A stretch of DNA of 64,000 nt from Rheinheimera riviphila. GTDB lineage: Bacteria > Pseudomonadota > Gammaproteobacteria > Enterobacterales > Alteromonadaceae. Below, one piece after another: positions 50,154-62,722 of the stretch. The notes beneath the pieces are model-generated. The model did not search any database and was not told the DNA's origin. It saw nothing but the letters and a program-made list of their open reading frames with translations. The DNA is taken from positions 1 to 64,000 of the forward strand of contig NZ_SACS01000020.1 in NCBI RefSeq assembly GCF_004005945.1, written 5' to 3'. The position numbers and the translations under genes were made by a program. The stretch's first letter is position 1; each line of letters opens with the position of its first letter.

Positions 50154-50322
50154 GCAGTTCTGGGTACCAATCAACCCGTCACCTGGCTGAGATGAACATC
50201 AGCTTTTCGCCGGTCGGATTCAACCAGTGTGTTGTAGCGCAGTGGTTGAGTCCGGGCTATGGCGTCGCTGGCATTGACCCCACAGCTTGACTCCTCCTCA
50301 ACTGACTGCTGCGACAGTGCTG

Positions 50323-50350
50323 GCTGATGGCGGCTTTTACAGCCATCAGC
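50323..50350. promoter_or_regulatory. Inverted repeat upstream of the sigma-54 promoter
   Basis: GCTGATGGC and GCCATCAGC form a perfect 9-bp inverted repeat with a 10-base loop, five bases before the -24 element. It may be an activator binding site or a terminator for the MFS gene; there is no T run after it. Confidence 0.45.
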
Positions 50351-50354
50351 ACAC

Positions 50355-50370
50355 TGGCATGTCCGTTGCT
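50355..50370 (+). promoter_or_regulatory. Predicted sigma-54 promoter of the acetyltransferase gene
   Basis: TGGCATGTCCGTTGCT matches the sigma-54 consensus TGGCACG-N4-TTGCW with GG and GC in the correct spacing; only positions 6 (T for C) and 8 differ. Transcription would start near 50382, giving a leader of about 39 bases before the ATG at 50421. Confidence 0.7.
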
Positions 50371-50420
50371 CCTTCTGCCTGGCGCCACTACTAACGCCGT
50401 TTACCAGGCAGGGATGTTTT

Positions 50421-51446
50421 ATGTCGTTGACTCAACACACCAATCCAGTCGTCAGTACCATCATCACGCAGGACAGCCATCGCATTGCGGTCGCCAAGCC
50501 TCTGCCAAGCTTGTCGTTGCGCCAGTTGTGTCAGTTGCCGCATGCGGCAGTGCAGCCGCAACAGCGCCTGGCAGTGATGTGTGCAGCAAGAGTGGCACTG
50601 GCAGATCCGGCGGTGGTATCCGCCACTGATGCGGACAAACTGGCGGCACTGGCACATTACCTCTGTGACTGGCCGTTGCTGCAGATGATGCAGGACCGCG
50701 GCTTGTGGCATCCCGCCCCGGCGGAACAAGTGCGGCCGGCGATTCAGTTTGGTCAGTTTGCCCGGGCGCTTGGTGTGCTGGAACAGTCGTCGGCTGCAGG
50801 CGCTGCAGCACTGCGACTGCAGCCGCTGCGCCAGGCATTGCAACAAATGCTGCATCAGCAGGCGTTTCCGCTTACAGCATTGCAGCGGGGAGCTGTTAGT
50901 CTGACCCCATTGCAGTTTCATCACGTGGCGGATTTTATCTGGCAATATGCCGATCCAAACATCAGCCGGCTCTGTAATCTGCCGGCCTTTCCATCCGCAG
51001 AACACTGGATGACCTGGTTATACCTGTGTCAGCAGGAGCCGGCGCGCCAGCTGTTTGCGGTGATGCATGCCGATTATGGTTTTATTGGTTCAGTTAGCTT
51101 GCAGGTCTTTGATGGCATTGGTTTTTTCTACTATTGGCTCGGGGCCGATTTTCAGGGGCAGGGCTTTGGTCCGCTGGCGGTTGAGGTGCTCATGCAGCTG
51201 GGCCGGCAGCATCTGGGGATGGATTGCTGCTATGCCAAAGTGTTTGATTACAATCTGGTGTCCAATAAGGCCATCAGCAAGCTGGGATTTCAGCAGCTGG
51301 CGCTGCGGGCCTTGCCGCCGTCGGAAGCTGAAGTGTTTTATTATCGGGGGGCTGCACTGAACGACATCGCTCATCATTCCAGCCTCGGCACGCTGTTACA
51401 GCAAATGAATTCCGGCATTGAGCTGGCAGAGTTGCCGCCACGGTAA
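50421..51446 (+). CDS. GNAT-type acetyltransferase at the R-body locus
   Basis: A 341-residue protein. The C-terminal third (about 180-315) is a GNAT domain of the ribosomal-protein-acetyltransferase (RimJ/RimL) type: LFAVMHADYGFIGSV, YYWLGADFQGQGFGPLA (the acetyl-CoA QGQGFG motif) and NKAISKLGFQQL. The N-terminal 170 residues are helical, Ala/Gln/Leu-rich and of unknown family. AGGGAT precedes the ATG. A sigma-54 promoter lies 51-66 bp upstream, so it is probably co-regulated with the reb genes and may modify an R-body or partner protein; that role is inference. Convergent with 51465. Confidence 0.8.
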   Translation: MSLTQHTNPVVSTIITQDSHRIAVAKPLPSLSLRQLCQLPHAAVQPQQRLAVMCAARVALADPAVVSATDADKLAALAHYLCDWPLLQMMQDRGLWHPAPAEQVRPAIQFGQFARALGVLEQSSAAGAAALRLQPLRQALQQMLHQQAFPLTALQRGAVSLTPLQFHHVADFIWQYADPNISRLCNLPAFPSAEHWMTWLYLCQQEPARQLFAVMHADYGFIGSVSLQVFDGIGFFYYWLGADFQGQGFGPLAVEVLMQLGRQHLGMDCCYAKVFDYNLVSNKAISKLGFQQLALRALPPSEAEVFYYRGAALNDIAHHSSLGTLLQQMNSGIELAELPPR

Positions 51447-51464
51447 AGCGTGGCGGCCTGGCGC

Positions 51465-52490
51465 TTATGAATTCAAACCATTACTTTTTGATTGCTGTAG
51501 TGATGTGATCAGGTCATTGACGCCCGTAGCGGCATAGGTATCGCGGTTCTGGCTCACCAGCAGCCGGTGGATCTCCGGCTCGTTCTGCTGAAGTTCGACC
51601 GAGGCTTCAATTTTCTGACCCAACCCGGTCAGATACTTGTAGAGGATCAAGCCGGCAAACACCGTCGGGTTATAAAACACTTTCACCGGCGGTTTGATCA
51701 CAAACATCCGGATCGGCAGACGAAACATAAACGGCAGGTAATTAACCAATAATCTGGATGACCAGCGTTGTGTAGCAACTCTGGTGCGGGTACGGACAGA
51801 TTTCGGCAGCGTAAAAGCGAGCACGCCGATACCAACCCAGCCAGCAATTTCTGCAAACCGATCGGTGATAACATCAAAATAACCGCCGGCAAGCTGTTTG
51901 GATTTGTCCATAATCAGCCGGTTCGGCTGCAGAATACCGTACTGTGAAGTTAATTTGTTATCCCAGATATATTTTTGCACAACAAAAGATTGTTTCATCT
52001 GTTGCAGCCAGATCTGCTGTAAGCTCCAGCCGGTACTGAGGAAACTGTTAAAATTAATGGCGTCATAATAACGCTGATAAAGCGCTTTGCGCTGAGCGAA
52101 ATATCTCCAGGTCAAATCCGAGTGTTGAAAAATAGTCCATATATTCGCCGGATGTGCTGATCGGTAGGTGCAGCCAACTACTTTATCCATTGTCGCGCCA
52201 ATACCGCTGCCAATATGATAAATGGCCGGACGGGTTAGTTTAGAGAACTGGTCAAAAACATAGTTTTCCACACGATATTTGGGGCGCATGAAAAAATAGG
52301 CGTTTTCAATGTCTTTATGTTTTACAAAATCATAAATCCAATCATGACCATATAAAACTTTATTTAGTGCAAGATCGCCATATAACCGACGTTGTTCAAT
52401 CAACGTATTTTTGTAAACAGTCAGCGAATTGCTACCGCTTTGTATTCTGTCTTTGATCTGATCATAAATTGTTCTGCTGCCTTCGCTCAT
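51465..52490 (-). CDS. Uncharacterised protein of the R-body locus
   Basis: A 341-residue protein of unknown family. The N-terminal two thirds are rich in Tyr, Trp, Arg and Lys (HDWIYDFVKHKDIENAYFF, HSDLTWRYFAQRKALYQRY); a Gly-rich HIGSGIGATMDKVVG lies near residue 110, and a hydrophobic stretch VGIGVLAFTLP near 235 plus a second near 290 suggest membrane association. I chose the ATG at 52490, with GAGGGAT upstream; a start at 52559 adds 23 residues. It may be co-transcribed with the upstream gene 52596-53480. A secreted toxin or membrane effector released with R-bodies is possible but unproven. Confidence 0.6.
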   Translation of the reverse strand: MSEGSRTIYDQIKDRIQSGSNSLTVYKNTLIEQRRLYGDLALNKVLYGHDWIYDFVKHKDIENAYFFMRPKYRVENYVFDQFSKLTRPAIYHIGSGIGATMDKVVGCTYRSAHPANIWTIFQHSDLTWRYFAQRKALYQRYYDAINFNSFLSTGWSLQQIWLQQMKQSFVVQKYIWDNKLTSQYGILQPNRLIMDKSKQLAGGYFDVITDRFAEIAGWVGIGVLAFTLPKSVRTRTRVATQRWSSRLLVNYLPFMFRLPIRMFVIKPPVKVFYNPTVFAGLILYKYLTGLGQKIEASVELQQNEPEIHRLLVSQNRDTYAATGVNDLITSLQQSKSNGLNS

Positions 52491-52595
52491 GATATCCCTC
52501 GATGTTGAATGCAGGAAGCGGCTGAGCCTGCGATATATGCTGCAAAACCAGTGCTTCACCGCTGAACTGAAAAAAAATGGCCGGAATGGGCAGAT

Positions 52596-53480
52596 TCACA
52601 GGCTTGGAGGGGGCATCTTGACCTTGGTCAGACTGCGTCGGATCGGAATTTGCTGGTAATACTGCCGGTCTTTGGTGAGCACGCTGACCATCGCCGTCAT
52701 GCTCAGCGATTTGTAATCGGTCAGACTCTGAGTTTCCTGATCCACGCCATAGGATTCAATGCCTTGGGTCAGGCAAGGGAATAAATAGCCATAGACTTCT
52801 GTGCTGGAAAAATCGTGTTTGGTCGCCACGCTTTTGTTCAGCAGAGATTTTTGCAGTTCAGCCGCCAGGCTGCCTTGCGTACCAATCGTCAGCAGTAAAA
52901 ATGCATTTTGCGATTCGAGGTTGTTGCTGAACTGCTCACGCAGCTGCTCCATACTGCTGAAGCTGTACTGTTTCGAGGCTGCACTGGCATTGCTGGTCAA
53001 ATACAGCTTCAATGTGGCCGGATCCTCGATTTGCAGCGAATCCAGATACTTTGCTAGCTGCGTGCTGTCCAGCCACTGGTTCACACCGTTATACAGCAAC
53101 GGGACACCGGCATTGCCTAACCCACAGATTAATAAGGTACATCCGCTGCCTTCCAGCTTCATTTGCGCAGCTGATTCTGTCAGAAAAGTTTCAGTGTCCT
53201 TGCGCAGTTTGTTCAGTACCGCCAGCGTAATGCTGTAATACATATCACTGGTCATCAACTCCGTTTCAAGCTTGTCGACGGAGCTGTCGTCAATCGATAA
53301 CCTGCCGATCAAAATATCCTGGAAGATCAGCGCGTCAGTCCGGCTGGAAAAAAATGGCTGGATCCATTCACTGGCTTTGGGCTTTTCTGCACTGATCACG
53401 GCCCGGGTAAAGTTTGCCCCAAATACATTGTCAAACAGTGTGGCCATGTCACTGAGCGGGCTGCAGATATATTTCTTCAT
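52596..53480 (-). CDS. Uncharacterised protein of the R-body locus
   Basis: A 294-residue protein of unknown family with no signal peptide. It has a GCTLLICGLGNAGVPLL strand near residue 120 that resembles a nucleotide- or sugar-binding loop, and a C-terminal RQYYQQIPIRRSLTKVKMPP basic tail. GGAG lies six bases before the ATG at 53480. The gene is divergent from the sigma-54 activator and precedes 51465 on the same strand (gap 105 bp). No sigma-54 promoter match is seen before it. The pairing with 51465 in a locus of this kind suggests shared function. Confidence 0.6.
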   Translation of the reverse strand: MKKYICSPLSDMATLFDNVFGANFTRAVISAEKPKASEWIQPFFSSRTDALIFQDILIGRLSIDDSSVDKLETELMTSDMYYSITLAVLNKLRKDTETFLTESAAQMKLEGSGCTLLICGLGNAGVPLLYNGVNQWLDSTQLAKYLDSLQIEDPATLKLYLTSNASAASKQYSFSSMEQLREQFSNNLESQNAFLLLTIGTQGSLAAELQKSLLNKSVATKHDFSSTEVYGYLFPCLTQGIESYGVDQETQSLTDYKSLSMTAMVSVLTKDRQYYQQIPIRRSLTKVKMPPPSL

Positions 53481-53795
53481 GATGGTCTCCAAATGATGAG
53501 AGGGTTTTAGTCGTCAGACTGTGATGCACAGGCCAATCAATTCAAAAATCCTGCCACTGTGTTTTTCGTATTGATTAAATGCTGTGGTGCGCATTGAATT
53601 TCAATGTAATCAGGTGTTTGTGTTTTGTTTGTAGCGTCCGCTGACATTGTATGACTTTAATTCAAAGGATTATTGTTGCGGTGGGCGTTTTTTATATGGC
53701 CGGAATTGTCCATGTTTAGCAGCACGCTGGATGATTTAGTCTGGTCATGCGCTGGGGTTTAAATTGAAGTAGTGACAAATTCAAAAAAAATAAAG
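53481..53795. other. Divergent intergenic region of the R-body locus
   Basis: 315 AT-rich bases between the divergent unknown gene and the sigma-54 activator. No gene seen. It should hold the promoters of both units; no sigma-54 match was found on either strand. Confidence 0.5.
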
Positions 53796-54866
53796 ATGAA
53801 TTCAAAAGCGGTACGCCGCTCGGCGGTGCTAGCATCATTTTCATTTGGACATGGAGAGCCGTTCGTGAATGCTGCAAATAATTTGACCATGATGTGTTCG
53901 GAGGTTTTACCGGGCGTCATCAGCCAGAATAAAGCGATGAAAACGCTGGCGGCGTATATAGCGAAAATTGCGCTCAGTGACGGGGCTGTGTTCCTGCATG
54001 GCGAAACCGGTACCGGCAAAGATCTGATAGCCCAGGCCATTCACCAGAAAAGTGGCCGGTTGGGGCGCATTGTCAGTGTGAACTGCGGCGCTATTCCGGA
54101 GAATTTATTTGAGTCGCTGTTTTTCGGCCACGAAAAAGGTGCTTTTACCGGCGCCGACAAAAAGCAACAAGGTTTTTTTTATCAAGCCAATTACGGCACT
54201 TTGTTCCTGGATGAGATTGCCGAATTGCCGTTGGTCCACCAAGCGAAGTTATTGCGGGTGCTGGAAAGCCGCCAGTTCAGCCGGATCGGCAGCAGTGAAA
54301 CCGAAGCATTTACCGGGCGGGTTATCAGCGCTTCGCATGTCAATCTGGCCGGGCAGGTGCAGCAACGGCTGTTCCGCGAAGATTTATGGTATCGCATCAA
54401 TCTATTTGAGATCACGGTCCCGGCGCTGCAACAGCGTCGGGATGATATTCCGCTGCTGGCGCAGTATTTTGCCCGTCTGACCAACCGGATCCGTTTCAGT
54501 GGCTGTGCGCTGAAATTGCTGCAGTTTGCCGAATGGCCCGGCAATATTCGTCAGTTGAAGAATTGTGTCGACAAGCTGGCTGTACTGGCAGACGGACCTG
54601 AAGTGACGGCGCAAAGCATCCAGCAACTGGCGATGTGTGAAGAACATGTCGATTGGGCGGTGCGGGTAGCGCAGGAAATTATTGAAATGCCGGTCAACAA
54701 CAAACTGAAAACCATTTATGACGCGCTGATTGCCCAAGCGGTTGAACGCAGCAATGGCAATAAAACCGAAGCGGCGCGGCTGCTGGGCGTGCACCGCAAA
54801 GTCATTGAGCGTCGGCTGGCGCAGATCCAGACCCGCGGCGGTGTGGCGCACGAGGTGATGCTATGA
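53796..54866 (+). CDS. Sigma-54-dependent activator without sensory domain
   Basis: A 356-residue bacterial enhancer-binding protein. The AAA+ domain has Walker A GETGTGKD (about residues 70-77), the sigma-54 contact loop GAFTGA (about 115-120), Walker B GTLFLDEIAELP and arginine-finger region; a C-terminal Fis-type HTH (NKTEAARLLGVHRKVIERRL) follows. There is no receiver, GAF or PAS domain, only about 45 poorly conserved N-terminal residues, as in PspF or HrpS, so activity is probably set by expression or a partner. The start is uncertain (GTG 53772 or ATG 53796). Its ATGA stop overlaps the next gene, tying it to the reb operon. Confidence 0.9.
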   Translation: MNSKAVRRSAVLASFSFGHGEPFVNAANNLTMMCSEVLPGVISQNKAMKTLAAYIAKIALSDGAVFLHGETGTGKDLIAQAIHQKSGRLGRIVSVNCGAIPENLFESLFFGHEKGAFTGADKKQQGFFYQANYGTLFLDEIAELPLVHQAKLLRVLESRQFSRIGSSETEAFTGRVISASHVNLAGQVQQRLFREDLWYRINLFEITVPALQQRRDDIPLLAQYFARLTNRIRFSGCALKLLQFAEWPGNIRQLKNCVDKLAVLADGPEVTAQSIQQLAMCEEHVDWAVRVAQEIIEMPVNNKLKTIYDALIAQAVERSNGNKTEAARLLGVHRKVIERRLAQIQTRGGVAHEVML

Positions 54867-55255
54867 GCCAGACCGTTCAACCGATGGCGCCAGGAGATGC
54901 CGCCCGTCAACAACTGCAACAACTGAAAACTGATTCCAGCCAGCAACTGGCACAACTGATGCTTGAGCAGCAACACAAGCTCAGCCAGATGGTACAGCAG
55001 TTGCAGGTGCAGCAGTTACAAGAGCAGCAGCCGGTGGCCGCGCCCGCGCCGCTTAGCAATGTAAAAGGCAGCGCAGAAGGCAGTACAGCAGGCCGTACAC
55101 CAGCGCTGGCAGATGCCTTACAGTTGCAGCAGAGCAATATTGGCAACATGGACCTGTTGCTGCAGCGGATCCACACGACGATGCACAGTACGCTGGCAAC
55201 GTCTGGTCCACAGCGAGGAGGGGGAGATGATGACAAAAACGGTCCAGCTGTTTGA
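54863..55255 (+). CDS. Gln-rich coiled-coil protein of the R-body operon
   Basis: A 130-residue protein. Residues 12-60 form a Gln/Leu-rich coiled coil (repeated QQL, LQV, LAQL), then a short Pro/Ala linker, an ALQLQQSNIGNMDLLLQRI helix and an acidic tail (GGGDDDKN). No family recognised. The ATG overlaps the activator stop codon by four bases, with GAGG upstream, so it is translated with the activator. It could be a scaffold, chaperone or activator partner. Confidence 0.7.
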   Translation: MSQTVQPMAPGDAARQQLQQLKTDSSQQLAQLMLEQQHKLSQMVQQLQVQQLQEQQPVAAPAPLSNVKGSAEGSTAGRTPALADALQLQQSNIGNMDLLLQRIHTTMHSTLATSGPQRGGGDDDKNGPAV

Positions 55256-55610
55256 AGCGGTGAAAACTGCAGACGGCGACTACCAATGTCAGCCGATCAG
55301 TGCCGCAGCATTTGACGGGCCGGTGGAGGCGACGGTATCGGATGCGGCGGCCAGCGCTGCGGCAGATCCAAATGGGGCAGATCCCAGTGCGGCAGATCCC
55401 ACGGCGCAGCCGATGTTTTTTATTGACAGCAACATCATGCAGTCCATATGGCCGGACTGGGCAGCCGAGGCCCAGGCAGTGTTTCTGCAAAGCCTGCACA
55501 GCAACGCGCTGGGTGGTCATACCCCGTATTTTCAGGAAGTGCACGCGCGTTTTGAACAGATGCGGCAGTCCTTGCAGCAGCAACTGGACCAATACAGCCG
55601 CTATGGTTAA
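55227..55610 (+). CDS. Uncharacterised protein of the R-body operon
   Basis: A 127-residue acidic protein. The N-terminal half has a short low-complexity region in which ADP-x-GADP-x-AADP units repeat (about residues 45-65, AADPNGADPSAADPTAQP), and the C-terminal half is helical with IWPDWAAEAQAVFLQSL and a FQEVHARFEQMRQSLQQQLDQY coiled coil. No family recognised. GAGGAGGGGGAG precedes the ATG at 55227. It overlaps the end of the upstream gene by 29 bases. Confidence 0.65.
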   Translation: MMTKTVQLFEAVKTADGDYQCQPISAAAFDGPVEATVSDAAASAAADPNGADPSAADPTAQPMFFIDSNIMQSIWPDWAAEAQAVFLQSLHSNALGGHTPYFQEVHARFEQMRQSLQQQLDQYSRYG

Positions 55611-55628
55611 CTACGATGGAGTCTGCAT

Positions 55629-56021
55629 ATGAGTGTGTCGATTGCCGCGATCGCAGAAGCCACAGCCCGGTTTGCAGCGGATGAGCTGAAGGCATTTCGC
55701 GCATTTATTGATGTCAGCAAAGCGTTAAAAGGTGCGGTGAAAACTCAGCAAAACCAGGCCGCCGACACTTTTAACGCGATGCAGGCCGCGCTGGACAGTC
55801 TGCAACAGCCGGTCGCTGCCAATGGGCTGGCAGTGATTGCCGTGCTGGAAGCGGATGCCGCTTATCTCAAGGCACTGCAGGCTGTGACGCTACTGCCGGC
55901 TGATGTGAATCAACCCGCGGTCTCGCTGGCTTATATGCAGGAATTTTTGCAGCAAGTGGATACGACGATGGCGCATCAGATACAAAGTGCAGACAGCGAG
56001 GGAGCACAGGGCGATGAGTGA
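55629..56021 (+). CDS. Helical protein of the R-body operon
   Basis: A 130-residue, Ala-rich, probably all-helical protein (ARFAADELKAFRAFIDVSKALKGAV, then TFNAMQAALDSLQQPV) with no membrane segment. No family recognised. GGAG lies seven bases before the ATG. It overlaps the following gene by eight bases. Its helical, Ala/Gln-rich character resembles the other reb-linked proteins, so it could be a minor ribbon or assembly component. Confidence 0.65.
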   Translation: MSVSIAAIAEATARFAADELKAFRAFIDVSKALKGAVKTQQNQAADTFNAMQAALDSLQQPVAANGLAVIAVLEADAAYLKALQAVTLLPADVNQPAVSLAYMQEFLQQVDTTMAHQIQSADSEGAQGDE

Positions 56022-56304
56022 AAGCAATACTGCGACCAGTTCAGCCCAGCAACTGATCCAGCCGTCGGTGAATCAGTCCATTGCGCTCGCCGTACAAAGT
56101 GCGGTCGATCTGATGCGAAATCTAAACACGATTGAGACTACGGTCATCGGTGTGGCGTCGGCCGCCTGGCTGGCCGAACCAGGAAATACGGCGTACAAAG
56201 ACATTATCGAAAATGCCACCAAAACCATTACTTTTGCCGTGGAAAACCTGGCAAAAGTGGGCACAGTCGGTGCAGGGGTCCTGACGGATCTGAAACCGGA
56301 TTGA
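56014..56304 (+). CDS. Reb-linked helical protein, paralogue A
   Basis: A 96-residue protein sharing a motif with the protein at 59532: VNQSIALAVQSAVDLMRNLNT against IAQSIALAAQNEVDAYRNQNT, then a GVASAAWLAEP segment. This QSIALA...VD..RN.NT pattern is related to, but distinct from, the RebB repeat, and both copies flank the rebB genes. It is probably an accessory ribbon subunit. AGGGCG precedes the ATG, which lies inside the end of the previous gene. Confidence 0.7.
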   Translation: MSESNTATSSAQQLIQPSVNQSIALAVQSAVDLMRNLNTIETTVIGVASAAWLAEPGNTAYKDIIENATKTITFAVENLAKVGTVGAGVLTDLKPD

Positions 56305-56348
56305 TTGGAACGGCTGCCCGCGCAGTCACCTGAAAACAAGGAGAATCT

Positions 56349-56561
56349 ATGACCGAGATCAATCATGCTGTGGCGCAAAGTGTTGCGCTGGTCAATGCGC
56401 TGACCGTGGGGATGGCGCCAGCGATGGCCATGGGTAGCCAGTATCAGCATCTGGCGTATAACCTGGGTCTGGCAACGCTGAATCAGGTATTTGCCCAACA
56501 ACAGGCCAACATCACGCATCAGGCAACGGCGGTAGCCGGCGTGTTGCATAGCTGGCGCTAA
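56349..56561 (+). CDS. rebB: RebB-family R-body protein
   Basis: A 70-residue RebB-family (killing trait) protein with the family core PAMAMGSQYQ ... NQVFAQQQANITHQA. It differs from the four tandem copies: the first residues are MTEINHAVAQSVALVNAL, and the C terminus ends AGVLHSWR rather than TKLFAQN. RebB proteins polymerise to the coiled ribbon of R-bodies. GGAGAA precedes the ATG. Confidence 0.85.
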   Translation: MTEINHAVAQSVALVNALTVGMAPAMAMGSQYQHLAYNLGLATLNQVFAQQQANITHQATAVAGVLHSWR

Positions 56562-56564
56562 ACC

Positions 56565-56906
56565 ATGATGCAGCCGGATAAACCCGAAAATAGACCCGAA
56601 AATAAACCCGAAAATGCAGTGGCGCAGCAGACAGTCGCCAGTGGCCAGGACTTATTGCAACAAGCCTTGGCGCTGTTTGATTTACAGCCTGTGCAGCCGG
56701 TGGCGTTGGTTTTCCCTAATGTGATTGGCGAACCGGGTGTTTTATCTGCTGGCCAGATGCAACACTATGTCGGCCAGCTGTTTGCACAGCAGGAACTGTT
56801 ATTTGCCGCGGCAGACGTGACAGAACCCGCGCCGGAAGCGGATGCTGAGCCGCTGGCCGAATCTGCCGAGCTGCAGGCGATCCGCCAGATGTATGCCGGG
56901 GACTGA
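56565..56906 (+). CDS. Uncharacterised protein of the R-body operon
   Basis: A 113-residue acidic protein. The N terminus has a short repeat (KPENRPENKPEN), the middle a VALVFPNVIGEPGVLSAGQ segment, and the C terminus a Glu/Ala-rich region before AIRQMYAGD. It starts four bases after the upstream rebB-like gene. The ribosome site is weak. No family recognised. Confidence 0.6.
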   Translation: MMQPDKPENRPENKPENAVAQQTVASGQDLLQQALALFDLQPVQPVALVFPNVIGEPGVLSAGQMQHYVGQLFAQQELLFAAADVTEPAPEADAEPLAESAELQAIRQMYAGD

Positions 56907-56917
56907 GCCACCCGGGC

Positions 56918-57511
56918 ATGAGTTTGCTGACCCGCCAAAGCCTGTTGCCCAAAGCCCGGCTTGAACAGGATTTACAGTTGACGCTGGGCAGTCGTATTGC
57001 AGCCCAGTTGACGCCGTTGCAGCAACAGCGACCCCGTATCTACCGCGATATGCAAAGTGACTGGCTGACGCCATATCAGCCGCCGTTATCGGCCGACCAT
57101 ACCAGCATGCAGCAACCCACACCTCTGCCATCGGATCTGTCCTGGTACTGGCAGCAACTGATACTGCCAGACCAGTCGATCTGCTCGGAACTGGTGCTGA
57201 TGCGCCGTGACCACATCCTTTACCTGACTTATCTAAACATCTTACCGGCGGACTTTGGCTTGTTCAGTCCGCTATGGCCACAACAGGCGATGCGATATGC
57301 CGACCAGCTGATTGCCGAAACACTTGGCAATATCGCCGCTTTTGCACGGGCACAGCATGATCTTGCCATTGTCACCACCCTGACCAATCCGAATCTGGCG
57401 GCCATTTTTGTGCATCAGCATTTCCAAAAAACGCCCAGCGGCAGCCAGATCGTCGGTTTCCCGCTGCCCGCGCGTTATGTCCGACTGCTGGCGCCGACGC
57501 CGCATGGTTGA
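56918..57511 (+). CDS. Uncharacterised protein of the R-body operon
   Basis: A 197-residue soluble protein with no signal peptide. Conserved-looking blocks are PLPSDLSWYWQQLILPDQS, a LYLTYLNILPADFGLF segment and a helical RYADQLIAETLGNIAAFARAQHD. It ends with a strand-rich FPLPARYVRLLAP. The Trp/Tyr content and late helices give no family I can name. It starts 11 bp after the preceding gene and is last in this part of the operon before the sigma-54 promoter at 57682. Confidence 0.6.
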   Translation: MSLLTRQSLLPKARLEQDLQLTLGSRIAAQLTPLQQQRPRIYRDMQSDWLTPYQPPLSADHTSMQQPTPLPSDLSWYWQQLILPDQSICSELVLMRRDHILYLTYLNILPADFGLFSPLWPQQAMRYADQLIAETLGNIAAFARAQHDLAIVTTLTNPNLAAIFVHQHFQKTPSGSQIVGFPLPARYVRLLAPTPHG

Positions 57512-57681
57512 GTGCGATTTTCCGACCGGCTGTTGTCCGGTAGCCGGATCAGACCGCCGGAATTTCTGAACTGGATGAAATGAACCGCTGCTTGGTAGTG
57601 TCAGATCGTTCTGTAACCACAATGAAAGTTAAAAATATATATAAAACATATAGATATGTATTTGTGTGGCAATGTTTTCAC
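57512..57681. other. Upstream region of the rebB promoter
   Basis: No gene. It contains a CCGGC...GCCGG inverted repeat (about 57524-57548), which could end the preceding operon, and an AT-rich stretch (57628-57660) that could be an upstream binding or bending site for the activator or IHF. Confidence 0.45.
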
Positions 57682-57697
57682 TGGCACAGCCAATGCA
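57682..57697 (+). promoter_or_regulatory. Predicted sigma-54 promoter of the rebB genes
   Basis: TGGCACAGCCAATGCA matches TGGCACG-N4-TTGCW: GG at -24 and GC at -12 with exact spacing; only positions 7 and 12 differ. Transcription would begin near 57709, 62 bp before the first tandem rebB. The activator at 53796 is the obvious partner. Confidence 0.75.
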
Positions 57698-57770
57698 CTG
57701 TTAAGGCAGAGTCCCTGAAAACGGATTCGAAAACAATGTCCTAGCGGTTCAAAAACCATGGAGAAAGATT

Positions 57771-58001
57771 ATGTCAAGTGCACAACTTGTAAATGGCGCG
57801 GTCGTCGACTCTGTCACTATTACCAACACAAAAGTTCTGGCTGAAGCCCCCGCAATGGCGATGGGTAGTTTGTATCAGACTATCGGCAATTCTGTTGCGA
57901 TGGCGGCGGCCAATGCGGTCTATGCCCAGCAACAGGCCAATGTGGTGTATCAGGCTTCGACCACCCTTGGGGTGACCAAACTGTTCGCACAAAATTCGTA
58001 A
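57771..58001 (+). CDS. rebB: RebB-family R-body protein, tandem copy 1
   Basis: A 76-residue RebB-family protein and likely a main subunit of the R-body ribbon. It has the conserved TNTKVLAEAPAMAMGSLYQTIG stretch, then NSVAMAAANAVYAQQQANV and a TLGVTKLFAQN end. Almost the same in copies 3 and 4. The start has GGAGAAAG upstream, typical of high expression. First gene after the sigma-54 promoter. Confidence 0.92.
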   Translation: MSSAQLVNGAVVDSVTITNTKVLAEAPAMAMGSLYQTIGNSVAMAAANAVYAQQQANVVYQASTTLGVTKLFAQNS

Positions 58002-58042
58002 CCACCTCGTGGTTTCAGTCTCGTCCATCGGGAGATTAGCTC

Positions 58043-58273
58043 ATGTCACAACCATGTGAAGTTAACGGAGCCATCGTTGATGCGGTCGCCGGCTCTAACG
58101 CGTCTGTCGTCGCTGTTGCTCCGGCGATGGCAATGGGAAATTTGTATCAGACGATTGGCAATTCTGTGGCGATGGCAGCGGCAAACGCCGTCTATGCCCA
58201 GCAACAGGGCTGGGTCACCTCTCAGTCTGCCGGAACCTTAGGGATCACTAAATTGTTCAGTCAGAACAAGTGA
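58043..58273 (+). CDS. rebB: RebB-family R-body protein, tandem copy 2 (divergent)
   Basis: A 76-residue RebB protein that shares AMAMGNLYQTIGNSVAM and ANAVYAQQQ with its neighbours but differs elsewhere: SNASVVAVAPAM replaces TNTKVLAEAPAM, QQQGWVTSQSAGTLGI replaces QQQANVxYQAxTTLGV, and a cysteine appears at residue 5. It may be a minor or junction subunit. GGGAG precedes the ATG. Confidence 0.9.
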   Translation: MSQPCEVNGAIVDAVAGSNASVVAVAPAMAMGNLYQTIGNSVAMAAANAVYAQQQGWVTSQSAGTLGITKLFSQNK

Positions 58274-58329
58274 TCAACAACGATTCAACCATCAGTAAGT
58301 AGGCGCAAGCCACTTCAGGAGAATTCATT

Positions 58330-58572
58330 ATGTCAAATGCTCCAGCTCAGCCAACAGTCGTCAATGGCGCTGTTGTCGATTCAATTGTGACGACCAATAC
58401 CAAAGTGCTGGCCGAAGCGCCGGCGATGGCGATGGGTAGTTTATACCAGACCATTGGCAATTCAGTGGCGATGGCCGCGGCAAATGCCGTGTACGCGCAG
58501 CAGCAGGCTAATGTCGGCTATCAGGCCGCCAGTACCCTTGGCGTGACCAAGCTGTTTGCAGATAACAAATAA
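58330..58572 (+). CDS. rebB: RebB-family R-body protein, tandem copy 3
   Basis: An 80-residue RebB protein with the standard TNTKVLAEAPAMAMGSLYQ core and an ANVGYQAASTLGVTKLFADNK end. Its N terminus is slightly longer (SNAPAQPTVVNGAVVDSI). AGGAGAA precedes the ATG. Close to copies 1 and 4 at DNA level. Confidence 0.92.
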   Translation: MSNAPAQPTVVNGAVVDSIVTTNTKVLAEAPAMAMGSLYQTIGNSVAMAAANAVYAQQQANVGYQAASTLGVTKLFADNK

Positions 58573-58603
58573 CCGGGTTTGATCAGTGTAAAAGGAGAAC
58601 ACG

Positions 58604-58843
58604 ATGAGTAGCACATCTCAACCAACAGCAGTCAATGGCGCCATTATTGATGCAGTCACGATTGCCAATACCAAAGTACTGGCCGAAGCACCCGCGATGG
58701 CGATGGGTAGTTTGTATCAGACCATTGGCAATTCAGTGGCGATGGCAGCAGCCAATGCCGTGTATGCGCAGCAGCAGGCCAATGTGGCCTACCAGGCCGC
58801 GACCACTTTGGGTGTCACCAAGTTGTTTGCCCAGAACAAGTAA
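58604..58843 (+). CDS. rebB: RebB-family R-body protein, tandem copy 4
   Basis: A 79-residue RebB protein with the same core (IANTKVLAEAPAMAMGSLYQ) and TKLFAQNK end. AAAGGAGAA precedes the ATG. The last of the tandem set, followed 24 bp later by a terminator hairpin. Confidence 0.92.
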   Translation: MSSTSQPTAVNGAIIDAVTIANTKVLAEAPAMAMGSLYQTIGNSVAMAAANAVYAQQQANVAYQAATTLGVTKLFAQNK

Positions 58844-58866
58844 CCAAAGTCGCACTCTTTGAAAAG

Positions 58867-58886
58867 CGCCCGAGGCGGGCGTTTTT
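58867..58886 (+). terminator. Terminator after the tandem rebB genes
   Basis: CGCCC-GAGGC-GGGCG followed by TTTTT. The short stem may let some transcripts read on into the downstream reb genes, giving unequal amounts of ribbon and accessory proteins. Confidence 0.7.
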
Positions 58887-58961
58887 CAGGAGGCATTTGT
58901 CCTGGCCCGCACATCTGTTTGCGCTGTGGCTCAAAGGATGACCATCAGACAGGTATCTATT

Positions 58962-59171
58962 ATGTCCGACACCAATTACATCAAAAGCTCAGTTGCCATC
59001 AATGACGAAGTGCAAAGTCAGAGCAATGAAACTCTGCAGACACTGTCGCTGGGGGCGTTGGTCAATGCCACCTCATTGACGATGCTAAACAACACCTCAA
59101 ACCAATATGCGGCACAGACACTGGCTAATTCGGCGATGGTGCAGGTTTGTAACAAAATTCTGAGTTCATAG
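58962..59171 (+). CDS. Divergent RebB-like protein
   Basis: A 69-residue protein that keeps the length and spacing of RebB (VNATSLTMLNNTSNQYAAQT where RebB has PAMAMG...NAVYAQQQ) but not the exact motif. It is probably a distinct ribbon component. The ATG at 58962 has AGG upstream. It lies after the terminator of the tandem genes. Confidence 0.65.
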   Translation: MSDTNYIKSSVAINDEVQSQSNETLQTLSLGALVNATSLTMLNNTSNQYAAQTLANSAMVQVCNKILSS

Positions 59172-59216
59172 ACCGATCCGGATCTATGCATTCATTTGTG
59201 ATTTCAGGAGTCTGCT

Positions 59217-59474
59217 ATGCCCACGACACCACCAGCCGCCGAGATATTTAATTGTCTCAAAGCGTCATTTGATCAGACTGCCAACAATGCGCAGGCGCAA
59301 TGGTCCCTTGATTTCAGCCGGCAACAAAATCGCTTGTTGCTTTCTGTGCAGATAGGTCCAACAGAGCCGCTGAAGGCCGGCAGCTGTCTGCAAAGCAGTA
59401 TTGATGCAGATGGTCTGAACACCCTGAGCGAATTTCTGGCCCAGGTCAAAATGCAGATGGCAAACCCAGGCTGA
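59217..59474 (+). CDS. Uncharacterised small protein of the R-body operon
   Basis: An 85-residue soluble protein with an alternating pattern (WSLDFSRQQNRLLLSVQIG) then a helix (LNTLSEFLAQVKMQMAN). It is not RebB-like. AGGAG precedes the ATG. No family recognised. Confidence 0.6.
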   Translation: MPTTPPAAEIFNCLKASFDQTANNAQAQWSLDFSRQQNRLLLSVQIGPTEPLKAGSCLQSSIDADGLNTLSEFLAQVKMQMANPG

Positions 59475-59531
59475 CATCTGCCTGGAAATCGCCGGGAAAT
59501 CGCGACAGCCACTAACCAATGAGAACCGCAT

Positions 59532-59966
59532 ATGACTGAATCAAAACAGCAAACGCCGCCAAGTTCGAAGCTGGGCCTGACGGCGGAAGAGGCCGCCGGC
59601 GCGTCGATTGCCCAGTCCATCGCGCTGGCGGCGCAGAACGAAGTGGATGCATACCGTAATCAGAACACGGTGAACATGGTGGCCATGGGGGTTGCCTATG
59701 CTAAGTGGCTGCAAAATCCTACGCTGAGCAAACAATACAGTGAGGTGGTCGATGCGGCACGTCTGAGCATGGGGAATGAAGAATCGGAGACGATCAAAGC
59801 CTTTGCCGGCGGCGTTAACAAGACCAGCGCCCATACCCGTGCGGAAAGCAATCCGCCGCCGCAAGCTGCTGCTGCGGCCAGTGCGCCGGGCCCTGGCACA
59901 CATTCGCTGCCAGCGAGGGTATTCAGTTATTTTTTATCGCCACCGGCCAAGCCGGAGCAATCTTAA
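59532..59966 (+). CDS. Reb-linked helical protein, paralogue B
   Basis: A 144-residue protein. The N-terminal part is paralogous to 56014-56304: SIAQSIALAAQNEVDAYRNQ and MGVAYAKWLQNP. It has a longer Pro/Ala-rich C-terminal tail (PPPQAAAAASAPGPGT...). GAGAA precedes the ATG. It is the last plus-strand gene of the locus and converges with the minus-strand accessory operon. Confidence 0.7.
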   Translation: MTESKQQTPPSSKLGLTAEEAAGASIAQSIALAAQNEVDAYRNQNTVNMVAMGVAYAKWLQNPTLSKQYSEVVDAARLSMGNEESETIKAFAGGVNKTSAHTRAESNPPPQAAAAASAPGPGTHSLPARVFSYFLSPPAKPEQS

Positions 59967-60070
59967 TCTCCTCAGTGCAACGCGGACTCTGTGGCAGGCG
60001 TGCCCGGCCAGGCGGCGACATATCAGCCAGGCTTGGCTGGCTGTGTTTGCTGCTGGCTGCCGTCGCTTAC

Positions 60071-60307
60071 TTAAAACCGCTGTTGTTCCAGTGAATCCAG
60101 CAGATGCTGCATCACACTGCGTTTTGCTGCCGCCCGTTGTTGCTGTTGTGCCGCATCTGATTGCAGTGCTGCAGTTATTGGCGATAAATCAATGGCCTGC
60201 CGGGTGGCGGTGACTGCGTCCTGCGGCGACATCTGCTGTAACCAGCTGGCGGGTTGCCAGTACCAGCCAAACCGATCAAATACTGCCACCTGTTCATCGG
60301 CTGCCAT
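60071..60307 (-). CDS. Uncharacterised protein of the reb accessory operon
   Basis: A 78-residue soluble protein with FGWYWQPASWLQQMSPQDAVTAT and a helical Gln/Ala-rich C terminus (SDAAQQQQRAAAKRSVMQHLLDS). AGG precedes the ATG. It starts 11 bp after the previous minus-strand gene. No family recognised. Confidence 0.6.
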   Translation of the reverse strand: MAADEQVAVFDRFGWYWQPASWLQQMSPQDAVTATRQAIDLSPITAALQSDAAQQQQRAAAKRSVMQHLLDSLEQQRF

Positions 60308-60318
60308 AGCAGCGCCTG

Positions 60319-60858
60319 TTACAGCAACAGCGCAGGCAACATGCTGCAGGGCGGCGTAGTGCAGGCAGCTGGTTGCAGCGTCTCAGGCGCAGGCACGGTG
60401 GTCGCGTCGGAGGCTGCCGTGCTGGCGCCTGGGGGAAACGGCAGTTGCAGCAGCGGGAAACGGCTGAGCAATTGTTGATATAACTGCTGGTGCCAGTGGA
60501 TCAATGTGCTGAGGCCGTTGCTTTGCTGTGTGCGGGCCCGGTACTCCTGCTGATAATCAAACCAATGCTCGGCATCTGATGGCAGCGGACAGCTGTACAA
60601 TAAATCAAGCAGCGCGCTTTGGGTGTCCGGATATACCGCTGACACTTGCTCAGCCTGGGCCAGGCTGATCTGTTCGGGCAGCAGTTGCCAGCGCTCGCTG
60701 AAAATAAACAGTTGCTGCATCTGGGCACCAAATGCCGCCAGTCGGGCAGGGCTCAGGGGGCGTTGCTGATAGGGATTGTCTTTTGCAAAGGCCAGCGTTT
60801 GTTGCAATAGCGCATTCAGCTGCAGAAAATCAATGGTATCCAAAGTAGTGAGTTGCAT
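60319..60858 (-). CDS. Uncharacterised protein of the reb accessory operon
   Basis: A 179-residue soluble, helical protein (TLDTIDFLQLNALLQQTLAF; QSALLDLLYSCPLPSDAEHWF) with a Pro/Ala-rich C-terminal tail ending in CTTPPC. AGGAA precedes the ATG. It lies between genes of the same strand with short gaps, so it is part of an operon whose first gene is the AraC regulator. Confidence 0.6.
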   Translation of the reverse strand: MQLTTLDTIDFLQLNALLQQTLAFAKDNPYQQRPLSPARLAAFGAQMQQLFIFSERWQLLPEQISLAQAEQVSAVYPDTQSALLDLLYSCPLPSDAEHWFDYQQEYRARTQQSNGLSTLIHWHQQLYQQLLSRFPLLQLPFPPGASTAASDATTVPAPETLQPAACTTPPCSMLPALLL

Positions 60859-60882
60859 GTTTAATTCCTGTCCGGGCGGTTT

Positions 60883-61311
60883 CTAGTCATAACGGTTATA
60901 GCTTGGCGGGCCGGCTAGCCCCTTTTGCTCTGGCGGGGTATCTTTGCTCCCCGCCACGATGGCAAAGCCGCTGGCAGGTATTGCAACCGGGGGCATGGCA
61001 ACGGTGGGCTGCTCAGGCCCGGTGTCGCCGCAAGCAGGGTTCAGGTCACGATAAAAAGCGCAGATCTGACTGAACAACTGCTGACATGCCGCCTGCTGCG
61101 GCGGATCGTCGCTGAGACTGGCCAGCGCCTGCAGTATCGGGCCGAACTCTGTCATTAGATTCCGGACCAACGATGCAGACAAAGCACGACCGTGGCGCTG
61201 AACATCCAGCAACACCGCTTGTTTCAGCCAGTGCAGCAGCAACTCCGCGGTTTCAGTCCCGGCGTTGCACTGCCTGATCAGGCTGACCATCAGGATCGGA
61301 TCTGTTTGCAT
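60883..61311 (-). CDS. Uncharacterised protein of the reb accessory operon
   Basis: A 142-residue helical protein (PILMVSLIRQCNAGTET, ELLLHWLKQAVLLDVQRHGR, ACQQLFSQICAFYRDL) with a Pro-rich C-terminal tail. The ATG at 61311 has GGAG six bases upstream; a longer frame to 61554 is possible but has no ribosome site or consistent domain. No family recognised. Confidence 0.6.
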   Translation of the reverse strand: MQTDPILMVSLIRQCNAGTETAELLLHWLKQAVLLDVQRHGRALSASLVRNLMTEFGPILQALASLSDDPPQQAACQQLFSQICAFYRDLNPACGDTGPEQPTVAMPPVAIPASGFAIVAGSKDTPPEQKGLAGPPSYNRYD

Positions 61312-61517
61312 ATCATTCTCCATTGCCGTTGTATATCGCGTCGTAAAAGCCAGTACTGCAGCCAGTACAGCAGCAAATACAGAAGCCAGATACGTGCCAA
61401 TCGCCCGGGCTGCTGTCTGAGGCTGCAATACCAGCAGAACAGCGCGATGCCAACGACATTCTGCCGTCGAAACTGAAGGCGCAGTGCCGGCCAGCGGCTT
61501 GAACCGGCCAGTTGCAT
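61290..61517 (-). CDS. Possible two-helix membrane protein
   Basis: A 75-residue frame with a first hydrophobic stretch (VVGIALFCWYCS), a second (IWLLYLLLYWLQYWLL) and a basic end (RRDIQRQWRM). It overlaps the next gene by 22 bases, as in translational coupling. No ribosome site is clear, and the start may be ATG 61517 or TTG 61550. Support is only the plausible membrane topology and its place in the operon. Confidence 0.4.
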   Translation of the reverse strand: MQLAGSSRWPALRLQFRRQNVVGIALFCWYCSLRQQPGRLARIWLLYLLLYWLQYWLLRRDIQRQWRMICKQIRS

Positions 61518-61556
61518 GCGCGCAGCGGCGCAATCTGACCGCTTCGGCAAACACCT

Positions 61557-62262
61557 TCAGACATCATTGAGCTCCCGTCGGATTTGTTTCGGAGTCTGAT
61601 TAAACAGACTTTTAAAAGAAGTGGAAAAATTGGCCTGTAGCGGATAGCCCAGCCGTGCAGATATTTCCTGAATACTTAAATTGGTATCGAGCAACAGTTG
61701 CCGGGCCTTCTGCATCCGTTGTGCGCGCAACCAGGCGGACACCCCGATATTCAGCTCCTTTTTAAAGGCTTTGGCTAAACTGTTGCGATTGGTATTCATC
61801 GCTTTGCTGATTGAGCTTAGCGTCAGCGGTTGCTCCAGATGTTGTTGAATGTAAAGGCAGGTTTTTTCCACCAGTGCTTTGTGTTTGCGACTGAGTGACG
61901 CCGTGTTGTAAGAGGGAGCACTGAGGAGTGGTTGCGGGAGTGGTAATAATATTTTTTGATAGACCTGCATAAACTGTTCAATCGATGCGCGCTCCAGCGG
62001 GCCGGTTAAGCGGAATGTGTGACTATGCAGATGAATAATGGCCGCGGCCTGAGGGCTCTCTGCCAGCAGCTGTTGCGCCAGAATAAAGCTACTTTCTTCC
62101 TCGATGATAAATACAGTCATTTTTTTTGAGACTGTATAATTCAACATTGTCCATACTGTCGGTGACCATGCATTGATATTCTTTGGTCAGAACTTGCCAC
62201 AATGGCATCAATTGTGGCGGATTGTTTGAAATGAAAACCAGAATTAAAGTGTCATTATTCAT
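61557..62262 (-). CDS. AraC-type regulator with N-terminal receiver-like domain, frameshifted at A8
   Basis: The AraC-type DNA-binding domain (LTLSSISKAMNTNRNSLAKAF, ISARLGYPLQANFSTSFKSLF) ends the protein. An open frame starting at ATG 62262, with GAGGAAA upstream, encodes 47 residues like the first half of a receiver (LILVFISNN ... YQCMVTDSMDNVELYSLKK) and then meets an A8 tract at 62120-62127. Skipping one A puts it in frame with VFIIEEESSFILAQQLL and the AraC domain, giving 234 residues. Without the shift, translation from ATG 62120 would give an AraC protein with about 80 residues before the HTH. A sequencing error, transcript slippage or a true mutation are all possible. The receiver-like half lacks the acidic cluster and phospho-Asp, so it would be a pseudo-receiver. 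Confidence 0.7.
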
Positions 62263-62722
62263 CAATATTTCCTCTGTTTGTTACTAAATGTTTGTTATTA
62301 AATGTTTGTTTAAAAATCAAAAATAAGATATTTTAATGTTTTATTATTGTGCTTGAGTGGCTGAACTTGTCGACAACAGAATGAACTGCAGCATATTTGT
62401 TGTCTTATATTGAGCCTGAAACCAAATAAGCTTGGGCGGTCACAACTATCGCCGGGCAATTGTTGGCAAACGCCATAGAATGGTGCTTTATATTTTTGTG
62501 ATGAAAACTTGATATATTTTCTTAAGCTGTTAGAACCACTGCCGATTTTTTATACGGCACGATGTTCAAAACAAAGGTTGCAGGACGGCTGCCGGTGAAT
62601 GCCTACTGCGTGTGGTAACACTGTCTGTGGCAACAACGTGGTGAGTTGATTGGGTCTGTCATTGCGGGGCAATTCGTAAAAAAGGTCAGTACATTGCAGC
62701 TATTTACCGACCCATTACATGT
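62263..62722. other. Intergenic region upstream of the AraC-type gene
   Basis: 460 AT-rich bases with no gene I can support. It should contain the AraC promoter. A weak sigma-54-like match on the minus strand (62579-62594, CGGCAGCCGTCCTGCA) has the right GG/GC spacing but only half of the other conserved bases. Confidence 0.5.

What the first reader, a model, noticed from the sequence alone, without database searches (positions are those of the whole stretch)
50355..62262. R-body (refractile body) locus with many uncharacterised accessory genes
Five clear RebB-family genes, a divergent RebB-like gene, two paralogous accessory proteins, a sigma-54 activator, an AraC-type regulator and about ten genes of unknown family lie together. 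R-bodies are spring-like protein ribbons; in Caedibacter they help kill paramecia. A locus of this size with so many accessory genes in this type of bacterium is worth study.
Basis: partly seen in the sequence, partly recalled or inferred. Interest (0 to 1): 0.85.

Follow-up and report, generated by a model that had tools for sequence, protein, structure and literature searches.

The report
R-body island with sigma-54 switch
A stretch of a water bacterium's genome encodes the parts of a spring-like protein ribbon (an R-body) together with a set of helper genes, and it appears to be switched on as one unit by its own control genes, one of which is split across two reading frames.

Summary
Five RebB (PF11747) proteins pass Pfam's cut-off; a sixth falls below it. 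The locus is a discrete 12.6-kb island in a Rheinheimera-type genome, inserted between two genes that are direct neighbours in four other species of the genus. The same ordered module occurs in Rheinheimera sp. SA_1 and in two other genera of the family. It fits neither published R-body synteny class: it shares HP1.2-like proteins and a HP1.4-like Reb with Group 1 but lacks HP1.1 and HP1.3.

(1) Sigma-54-type promoter sites precede four transcription units at syntenic places in all four loci, and the module carries a sigma-54 activator with intact GAFTGA; AAA-AraC regulators at ten other reb loci lack it. (2) The slot between the GNAT gene and the activator holds different orphan genes in each genus, behind weaker sigma-54-like sites: candidate payload. 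(3) The AraC regulator is split over two frames at an A7-A8 run in all four loci, suggesting slippage (as in Shigella MxiE) or phase variation.

Ribbon formation, promoter activity, frameshifting and payload function are inferred, not shown. New variant of a known kind.

The parts
50154..62722 (.). whole island, between an MFS gene (ends 50153) and a GH97 gene (62723 onwards)
   Evidence: The two flanking genes are 61-71 bp apart in G015, G010, G002 and G007; families of the flanks; no shared repeat of 10 bp or more at the two ends
50355..50370 (+). sigma-54-type promoter site before g01 (score 15.3 of 16.5)
   Evidence: same place in 4 of 4 loci
50421..51446 (+). g01, GNAT acetyltransferase domain protein
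   Evidence: PF13302 51.6 bits; conserved in 4 of 4 loci
51465..52559 (-). g02, orphan protein of the variable slot, candidate payload
   Evidence: 2 of 295 family genomes, window and SA_1; no Pfam match
52596..53480 (-). g03, orphan protein of the variable slot, candidate payload
   Evidence: conserved in SA_1 (90%); replaced by other genes in G078 and G281
53541..53556 (-). sigma-54-like site before g03 (score 13.3; lacks the -12 GC)
   Evidence: counterparts in the three other loci
53772..54866 (+). g04, sigma-54 activator (AAA+ with GAFTGA, Fis-type HTH, no sensor domain found); true start probably downstream of the GTG given
   Evidence: PF00158 203 bits, PF02954; GAFTGA in the sequence; relatives 325-333 aa
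54863..55255 (+). g05, glutamine-rich accessory protein
   Evidence: syntenic in 4 of 4 loci
55230..55610 (+). g06, accessory protein
   Evidence: syntenic in 4 of 4 loci
55629..56021 (+). g07, accessory protein
   Evidence: syntenic in 4 of 4 loci
56014..56304 (+). g08, HP1.2-like (probably S3) accessory protein
   Evidence: matches the Azospirillum HP1.2 protein, E 2e-11; profile 98.7%
56349..56561 (+). g09, RebB protein, resembles HP1.4
   Evidence: 44 bits; E 1e-7 to the Azospirillum HP1.4-like protein; absent from G281
56565..56906 (+). g10, accessory protein
   Evidence: syntenic in 4 of 4 loci
56918..57511 (+). g11, probable GNAT-fold protein
   Evidence: low-confidence model whose PDB matches are acetyltransferases
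57682..57697 (+). sigma-54-type promoter site before the tandem reb operon (score 14.7)
   Evidence: counterparts in the three other loci (12.7-14.7)
57771..58001 (+). g12, RebB protein
   Evidence: 81 bits
58043..58273 (+). g13, RebB protein
   Evidence: 70 bits
58330..58572 (+). g14, RebB protein
   Evidence: 74 bits
58604..58843 (+). g15, RebB protein
   Evidence: 83 bits
58962..59171 (+). g16, possible distant Reb protein
   Evidence: 16 bits, below the cut-off of 24; 67-68% identical in the other genera
59217..59474 (+). g17, accessory protein
   Evidence: syntenic in 4 of 4 loci
59532..59966 (+). g18, paralogue of g08
   Evidence: profile 97.7% to g08, 95.7% to HP1.2
60071..60307 (-). 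g19, accessory protein
   Evidence: syntenic in 4 of 4 loci
60319..60858 (-). g20, accessory protein, resembles the small slot proteins of G078 and G281
   Evidence: profile 88.5%
60883..61326 (-). g21, accessory protein, fused to g20 in G281
61384..61399 (-). sigma-54-type promoter site before g21 (score 15.2)
   Evidence: same place in 4 of 4 loci
61557..62126 (-). g22 C-frame: second part with AraC-type HTH
   Evidence: PF12833 76 bits; frames
62120..62127 (-). run of eight A at which the two frames of g22 meet
62089..62262 (-). g22 N-frame: first part, ATG at 62262, ends 19 nt-scale beyond the run; no Pfam match
   Evidence: homologous in G078 (z = 10)

Best explanation
This is a self-contained R-body island of a type not described in the papers I could read. 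Shown by sequence comparison: four tandem RebB proteins plus one further RebB protein; a conserved accessory set; a dedicated sigma-54 activator (g04); sigma-54-type promoter sites before the tandem reb operon, the GNAT gene g01, the g21-g20-g19 operon and the variable slot; and an AraC-type regulator (g22) split over two frames at an A-run. Inferred: the Reb proteins polymerise into a ribbon; g22 is made in full only when RNA polymerase or the ribosome slips at the A-run, and it turns on the g04 operon; g04 with RpoN then fires the ribbon, accessory and slot genes together in a minority of cells; the genus-specific slot genes (g02 and g03 here) encode payload that the ribbon helps to deliver to a predator or host.
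For: RebB HMM. Same gene order in three genera although many accessory proteins keep only 26-43% identity. Clean insertion site in four other species. GAFTGA-bearing activator and RpoN in the four module genomes. Sigma-54-like sites at 16 of 16 expected starts at score 12.7 or more, and 11 of 16 at 14.4 or more, against 6 of 199 and 0 of 199 control starts. g22 split at an A7-A8 run in 4 of 4 loci, with conserved codons in the second frame upstream of any start codon in G078 and G281.
Against: The score threshold 12.7 was chosen after seeing the sites, the consensus is recalled, and the G281 slot start codon was chosen after seeing its site. The window's own slot site lacks the -12 GC. Four of 66 other module starts also reach 12.7: g06 once and g09 three times. 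No shared activator-binding motif was found. The A-runs are 7-8 long, shorter than the nine that mark slippage in many genomes. No toxin or effector domain was recognised in the slot proteins. That g22 controls g04 is a guess from gene content. No expression or microscopy data exist here.
Confidence: 0.6

Rival explanations
1. An ordinary Group 1 R-body locus of the published kind, with lineage-specific neighbours that are unrelated to it.
For: g08 and g18 are HP1.2-like and g09 resembles HP1.4.
Against: No HP1.1 match in the SA_1, G078 and G281 loci or between window proteins and the Azospirillum locus; no HP1.3-length protein; the other genes keep order across three genera.
Confidence: 0.15
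2. g22 is phase-variable: the DNA run itself changes length, so that single cells are on or off, and every sequenced clone happened to be out of frame.
For: Run length differs between lineages (A7, A8 and, at a related regulator in G020, A9) while the halves stay conserved. With two of three lengths out of frame by chance, four independent lineages all out of frame is not unlikely (about 0.2, my arithmetic).
Against: Runs of 7-8 are short for this; no in-frame copy of the module's g22 was seen among four.
Confidence: 0.3
3. g22 is decayed, and the island is controlled by g04 alone.
For: A frame break at a homopolymer is the usual way for a gene to decay; few changes support the pN/pS values (6, 14 and 25).
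Against: Same break point in three genera, pN/pS 0.45, 0.39 and 0.17 between window and SA_1, second half 40-45% identical across genera.
Confidence: 0.12
4. The slot genes are passengers that happen to sit inside the island and have nothing to do with R-bodies.
For: Orphan sequences without recognised domains; different strand arrangement in G281.
Against: Sigma-54-like sites before the slot genes in 4 of 4 loci; homologous small proteins in G078 and G281 (E 2.4e-8) that resemble g20; g02 found only with this module in 295 genomes.
Confidence: 0.35

Closest known systems
Group 1 reb loci (Raymann et al. 2013, PMC3583457; groups 1, S1-S3 of Dorr et al. 2026, PMC13430693)
   Same: Tandem Reb genes, HP1.2-like proteins (g08, g18) and a HP1.4-like Reb (g09)
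   Different: No HP1.1 or HP1.3; many genes absent from the Group 1 loci compared; sigma-54 activator with GAFTGA instead of the AAA-AraC fusions seen at ten such loci; window Rebs lack the QITD signature described by Dorr et al. but keep NAV and QQQ
Pseudomonas aeruginosa PA14 reb cluster (Wang et al. 2021, PMC8322103)
   Same: reb genes with dedicated regulators in the cluster
   Different: RcgA and the sigma factor FecI2 control rebP1 there (sections 6 and 8 read); no homologues of the window's accessory genes were found in the two loci with that kind of regulator pair that I compared (Ruegeria and Burkholderia)
Azorhizobium caulinodans reb operon (PMC5527310)
   Same: reb operon with its own activator
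   Different: RebR, discussed with Crp-Fnr members, and the repressor PraR (abstract and passages seen)
Shigella flexneri MxiE
   Same: AraC-family activator encoded in two overlapping frames at a homopolymer run (passages of PMC1088944; listing)
   Different: There slippage was demonstrated at a run of Us; here a run of A7-A8 and no experiment

Membership tests
R-body (reb) locus | several RebB-family (PF11747) proteins in a cluster | tested here: met
   five over the cut-off
R-body (reb) locus | NAV and QQQ motifs of Reb proteins | tested here: met
   AANAVYAQQQ in the four tandem Rebs, read by eye
R-body (reb) locus | QITD signature of primary Reb proteins (Dorr et al. 2026) | tested here: not met
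   the tandem Rebs read G[AI][IV]VD or similar at that place, by eye; a common but, by that paper, not universal feature, so the HMM decides
R-body (reb) locus | forms an extendable ribbon | not testable with these tools
   needs microscopy
Group 1 synteny | HP1.2 protein | tested here: met
   g08 E 2e-11, profile 98.7%
Group 1 synteny | HP1.4, short distant Reb | tested here: inconclusive
   g09 resembles it (E 1e-7) but also the other Rebs
Group 1 synteny | HP1.1 (about 360 aa) | tested here: not met
   no match; g02 has the length only
Group 1 synteny | HP1.3 (long distant Reb) | tested here: not met
   only short Rebs match the HP1.3 query in the module loci
Group 2 synteny | HP2.1/HP2.2 with sigma factor and Crp-type regulator | tested here: not met
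   of the Ruegeria and Burkholderia loci only Reb genes match window proteins convincingly
Sigma-54-controlled regulon | activator with AAA+ domain and GAFTGA, RpoN in the genome | tested here: met
Sigma-54-controlled regulon | -24/-12 promoter sites | tested here: met
   sequence match only
Sigma-54-controlled regulon | upstream activator-binding sites | tested here: inconclusive
   no shared motif or dyad above shuffles
MxiE-like slippage-gated AraC activator | two overlapping frames meeting at a homopolymer run, AraC HTH in the second | tested here: met
MxiE-like slippage-gated AraC activator | fused product made by slippage | not testable with these tools
   needs RNA and peptide data

The most novel reading that the evidence does not exclude
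A transferable R-body delivery island in which a frameshift-gated AraC regulator starts a sigma-54 cascade that fires ribbon, adaptor-like proteins and a swappable, genus-specific payload cassette together in a small fraction of cells: a molecular cause for the stochastic production of R-bodies, and a defined place to look for the unidentified R-body toxins.
Probability: 0.3. Interest if true: 0.87.

Novelty: new variant of a known kind. Interest (0 to 1): 0.68.

Why it matters
R-bodies help kill paramecia, but the toxin and the cause of their rare, uneven production are open. PA14 expresses rebP1 in 0.26% of cells (PMC8322103, section 8), and Raymann et al. found no general toxin candidate beyond the conserved unknown proteins. 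This island offers testable candidates for both: a slot whose genes change with the genus yet sit behind the same promoter type, and a regulator whose reading frame is broken at an A-run in each of the four copies examined. It would also add sigma-54 to the ways of controlling reb genes.

Tried and rejected
Rejected: g02 as HP1.1 despite equal length. g20 and g21 as paralogues: the first profile match of 99.9% came from one fused G281 protein placed in both families; with it split the match is 1.3%. Phage origin: no tblastn match of a Reb in 50,697 phage records, no relative of g11 (G078 copy) or g03 in viral contigs, and nothing at E <= 0.01 in PHROGs for the ten proteins scanned (two weak hits at 0.03 and 0.06). 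A sigma-54-like site inside g05, found in the window, SA_1 and G078, lies in coding sequence and was not counted as a promoter.

Led nowhere: search for activator-binding sites; AlphaFold model of g03, mean pLDDT 35; plasmid searches for g02, g03 and the large slot proteins of G078 and G281; PDB sequence searches for g02, a Reb and the G281 slot protein; Pfam does not recognise the N-half of g22, so 'receiver-like', used in my notes, is by eye only. My test for a Walker A motif also missed it in g04 itself, so I draw nothing from it. No repeat of 10 bp or more is shared by the two island ends.

Coverage limits: of the 21 Reb-positive genomes in the family draw of 295 I did not open the loci of G085, G117 and G138, nor the main loci of G105 and G166. 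The g11 profile found only the window among 394 order genomes; G013, G078 and G281 would have matched, so they were presumably not in that draw. The single genome-contig scan found only SA_1.

The confidence of the best explanation was set to 0.6 because it joins several inferred steps. A first attempt to submit this report was malformed and was not filed.
Full report
What is there. The window lies in a 4.7-Mb genome whose nearest named relative at this locus is Rheinheimera sp. SA_1; SA_1's contig and position match genome G013, which the tools place in the same genus. PF11747 matches five proteins over its cut-off and no others in the genome. The module runs from g01 (50421) to the start of the regulator g22 (62262). 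It replaces a short gap: the MFS gene on its left and the GH97 gene on its right (families) lie 61-71 bp apart in G015, G010, G002 and G007; in the three other species opened (G003, G009, G006) the MFS gene is not beside the GH97 gene on that side. No integrase was noticed and no repeat of 10 bp or more is shared by the two ends; mobile-element genes were not searched for systematically.

The module is conserved as a unit. G281 lacks g09 and has g20 and g21 fused. The four tandem Rebs keep 80-92% identity across genera, while g05, g06, g07, g10, g11, g17, g20 and g21 keep 26-43%. Order kept through such divergence argues that the accessory genes work with the Rebs. Within the genus, 7 of 22 genomes have Reb matches; two have this module and five have two Reb matches each in other surroundings. 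Reb genes occur in 21 of 295 family genomes and 4 of 369 class genomes, the window's own genome counted in both.

Comparison with published classes. Raymann et al. 2013 (Results read) define Group 1 by HP1.1 to HP1.4, and Group 2 by HP2.1/HP2.2, often with a sigma factor and a cyclic-nucleotide-type regulator. I used an Azospirillum plasmid locus as the Group 1 standard, and a Ruegeria and a Burkholderia locus, which carry the Crp-type and sigma-factor pair, for Group 2. g08 and g18 are HP1.2-like; g09 resembles HP1.4; HP1.1 and a HP1.3-length protein were not found. Library searches for R-body with sigma-54, Rheinheimera, phase variation, frameshift and reb genes/AraC listed no paper on such a module; I judged by listings, and most subscription papers are not held.

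Sigma-54 control. g04 has the AAA+ domain, GAFTGA and a Fis-type HTH, and no other domain was found in it. RpoN is present in the four module genomes. With a hand-made score from a recalled consensus (maximum 16.5), the best upstream site scores 14.5-15.7 for g01 in the four loci, 14.4-15.2 for g21, 12.7-14.7 for g12 and 13.2-13.8 for the first slot gene. In the 40-110 bp before start codons, 16 of 16 such cases reach 12.7, 15 reach 13 and 11 reach 14.4. Controls at 12.7: 1 of 44 genes outside the module, 1 of 89 Reb-family starts at other loci, and 4 of 66 other starts inside the module (g06 in SA_1; g09 in window, SA_1 and G078); none of the 199 reaches 14.4. The g09 sites may be real in G078; in the window that site lies inside the g08 coding sequence. 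Fisher's test on 12 of 12 independent cases against the 2 of 133 outside controls gives 8e-16, and 9e-14 without the G281 slot, whose start codon I chose after seeing the site; the in-module controls are not in that test. The threshold was set after seeing the data, the SA_1 and window loci are close relatives, and the window's own slot site lacks the -12 GC. Eleven AAA-type regulators at ten other reb loci carry an AraC signature and lack GAFTGA; one more, at the G049 locus L039, lacks both. So sigma-54 control looks particular to this module among the loci compared. No activator-binding motif was found.

The variable slot. Between g01 and g04 lie g02 and g03 in the two Rheinheimera loci, proteins of 162, 645 and 265 aa in G078, and of about 638 and 192 aa in G281. 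None of the large ones has a Pfam match above its cut-off; the 265-aa one has a glycine-rich domain (PF21722, 26.8 bits). The G281 large protein occurs in 1 of 295 genomes, its own, and g02 in 2 of 295, the two module genomes of the genus. The 162- and 192-aa proteins are homologous (26% over 117 aa, E 2.4e-8) and resemble g20 (profile 88.5%). I read this as payload plus small adaptor; no step of that is shown, and no toxin domain was recognised.

The split regulator. On the minus strand the AraC frame is open from the A8 run at 62127-62120 down to 61557, and a second frame starts at ATG 62262 and ends at 62089. The same holds in SA_1 (A8), G281 (A8) and G078 (A7); the first three need a shift of one kind, G078 of the other. 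The N-halves of window and G078 align without gaps over 47 residues (z = 10); window against G281 is weaker (z = 3.6) and G078 against G281 is not significant (z = 0.7). In G078 and G281 the first start codon in the AraC frame comes 40 and 39 codons after the run begins, although the stretch in between is conserved, beginning KKISAVIVD in both. In Rheinheimera an ATG lies at the run itself, so separate starts are possible there. A Reb-linked AraC gene in G020 is also split, at an A9 run, whereas its relative in G452 is one open frame that matches both parts; in that related gene the two parts therefore form one protein. pN/pS between window and SA_1 is 0.45 (N-half), 0.39 (next 70 codons) and 0.17 (HTH part), from 6, 14 and 25 changes. 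Shigella mxiE is the closest parallel: an AraC-family activator made by transcriptional slippage (listing, passages); the same paper takes nine as the telling run length in many genomes and notes likely slippage on eight As in some IS elements. Phase variation and decay remain open.

g11. With four sequences AlphaFold gave a low-confidence model (mean pLDDT 54, 44 residues at 70 or more), but the 50 Foldseek rows shown, from E 2.6e-5, are acetyltransferases or related acyltransferases by name, SpNatD included, with low TM-scores (0.32-0.41 by query). With g01 the module thus has two probable GNAT proteins; their substrates are unknown.

Verdict. The R-body assignment is firm by homology; the module, its boundaries and its promoter sites are well supported by comparison; the frame split is real in the sequences but its use is inferred; the payload reading is a hypothesis.

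Noticed in passing
L049-L052, L054, L055: Group 1 loci of this family and class have, after HP1.1, a further conserved pair: a protein of about 160-240 aa and one of about 360-500 aa that begins alike in these loci, then varying genes. I saw neither named in the papers read.
   Followed up: partly
L033, L044, L049, L050, L052-L055, L060, L062: Regulators that join a sigma-54-activator-like AAA domain without GAFTGA to an AraC-type HTH sit beside Group 1 reb genes (11 proteins at 10 loci); the window has the two functions as separate genes.
   Followed up: partly
L042:14502-19625: The Azospirillum Group 1 locus is followed by a 1707-aa protein annotated hypothetical, with a small protein before it.
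   Followed up: no
L034:9240-9503: A lone RebB gene in G034, far from that genome's main cluster, is closer to the window's tandem Rebs (E 3e-34) than G034's clustered Rebs are.
   Followed up: no
L032, L035, L036, L037, L038: Five other genomes of the genus carry a different reb locus with two Reb genes; L038 has the A9-split AraC gene.
   Followed up: partly
window 53783-53790: A second A8 run lies just after the GTG start given for g04; the true start is probably downstream, as the relatives are 325-333 aa long.
   Followed up: no
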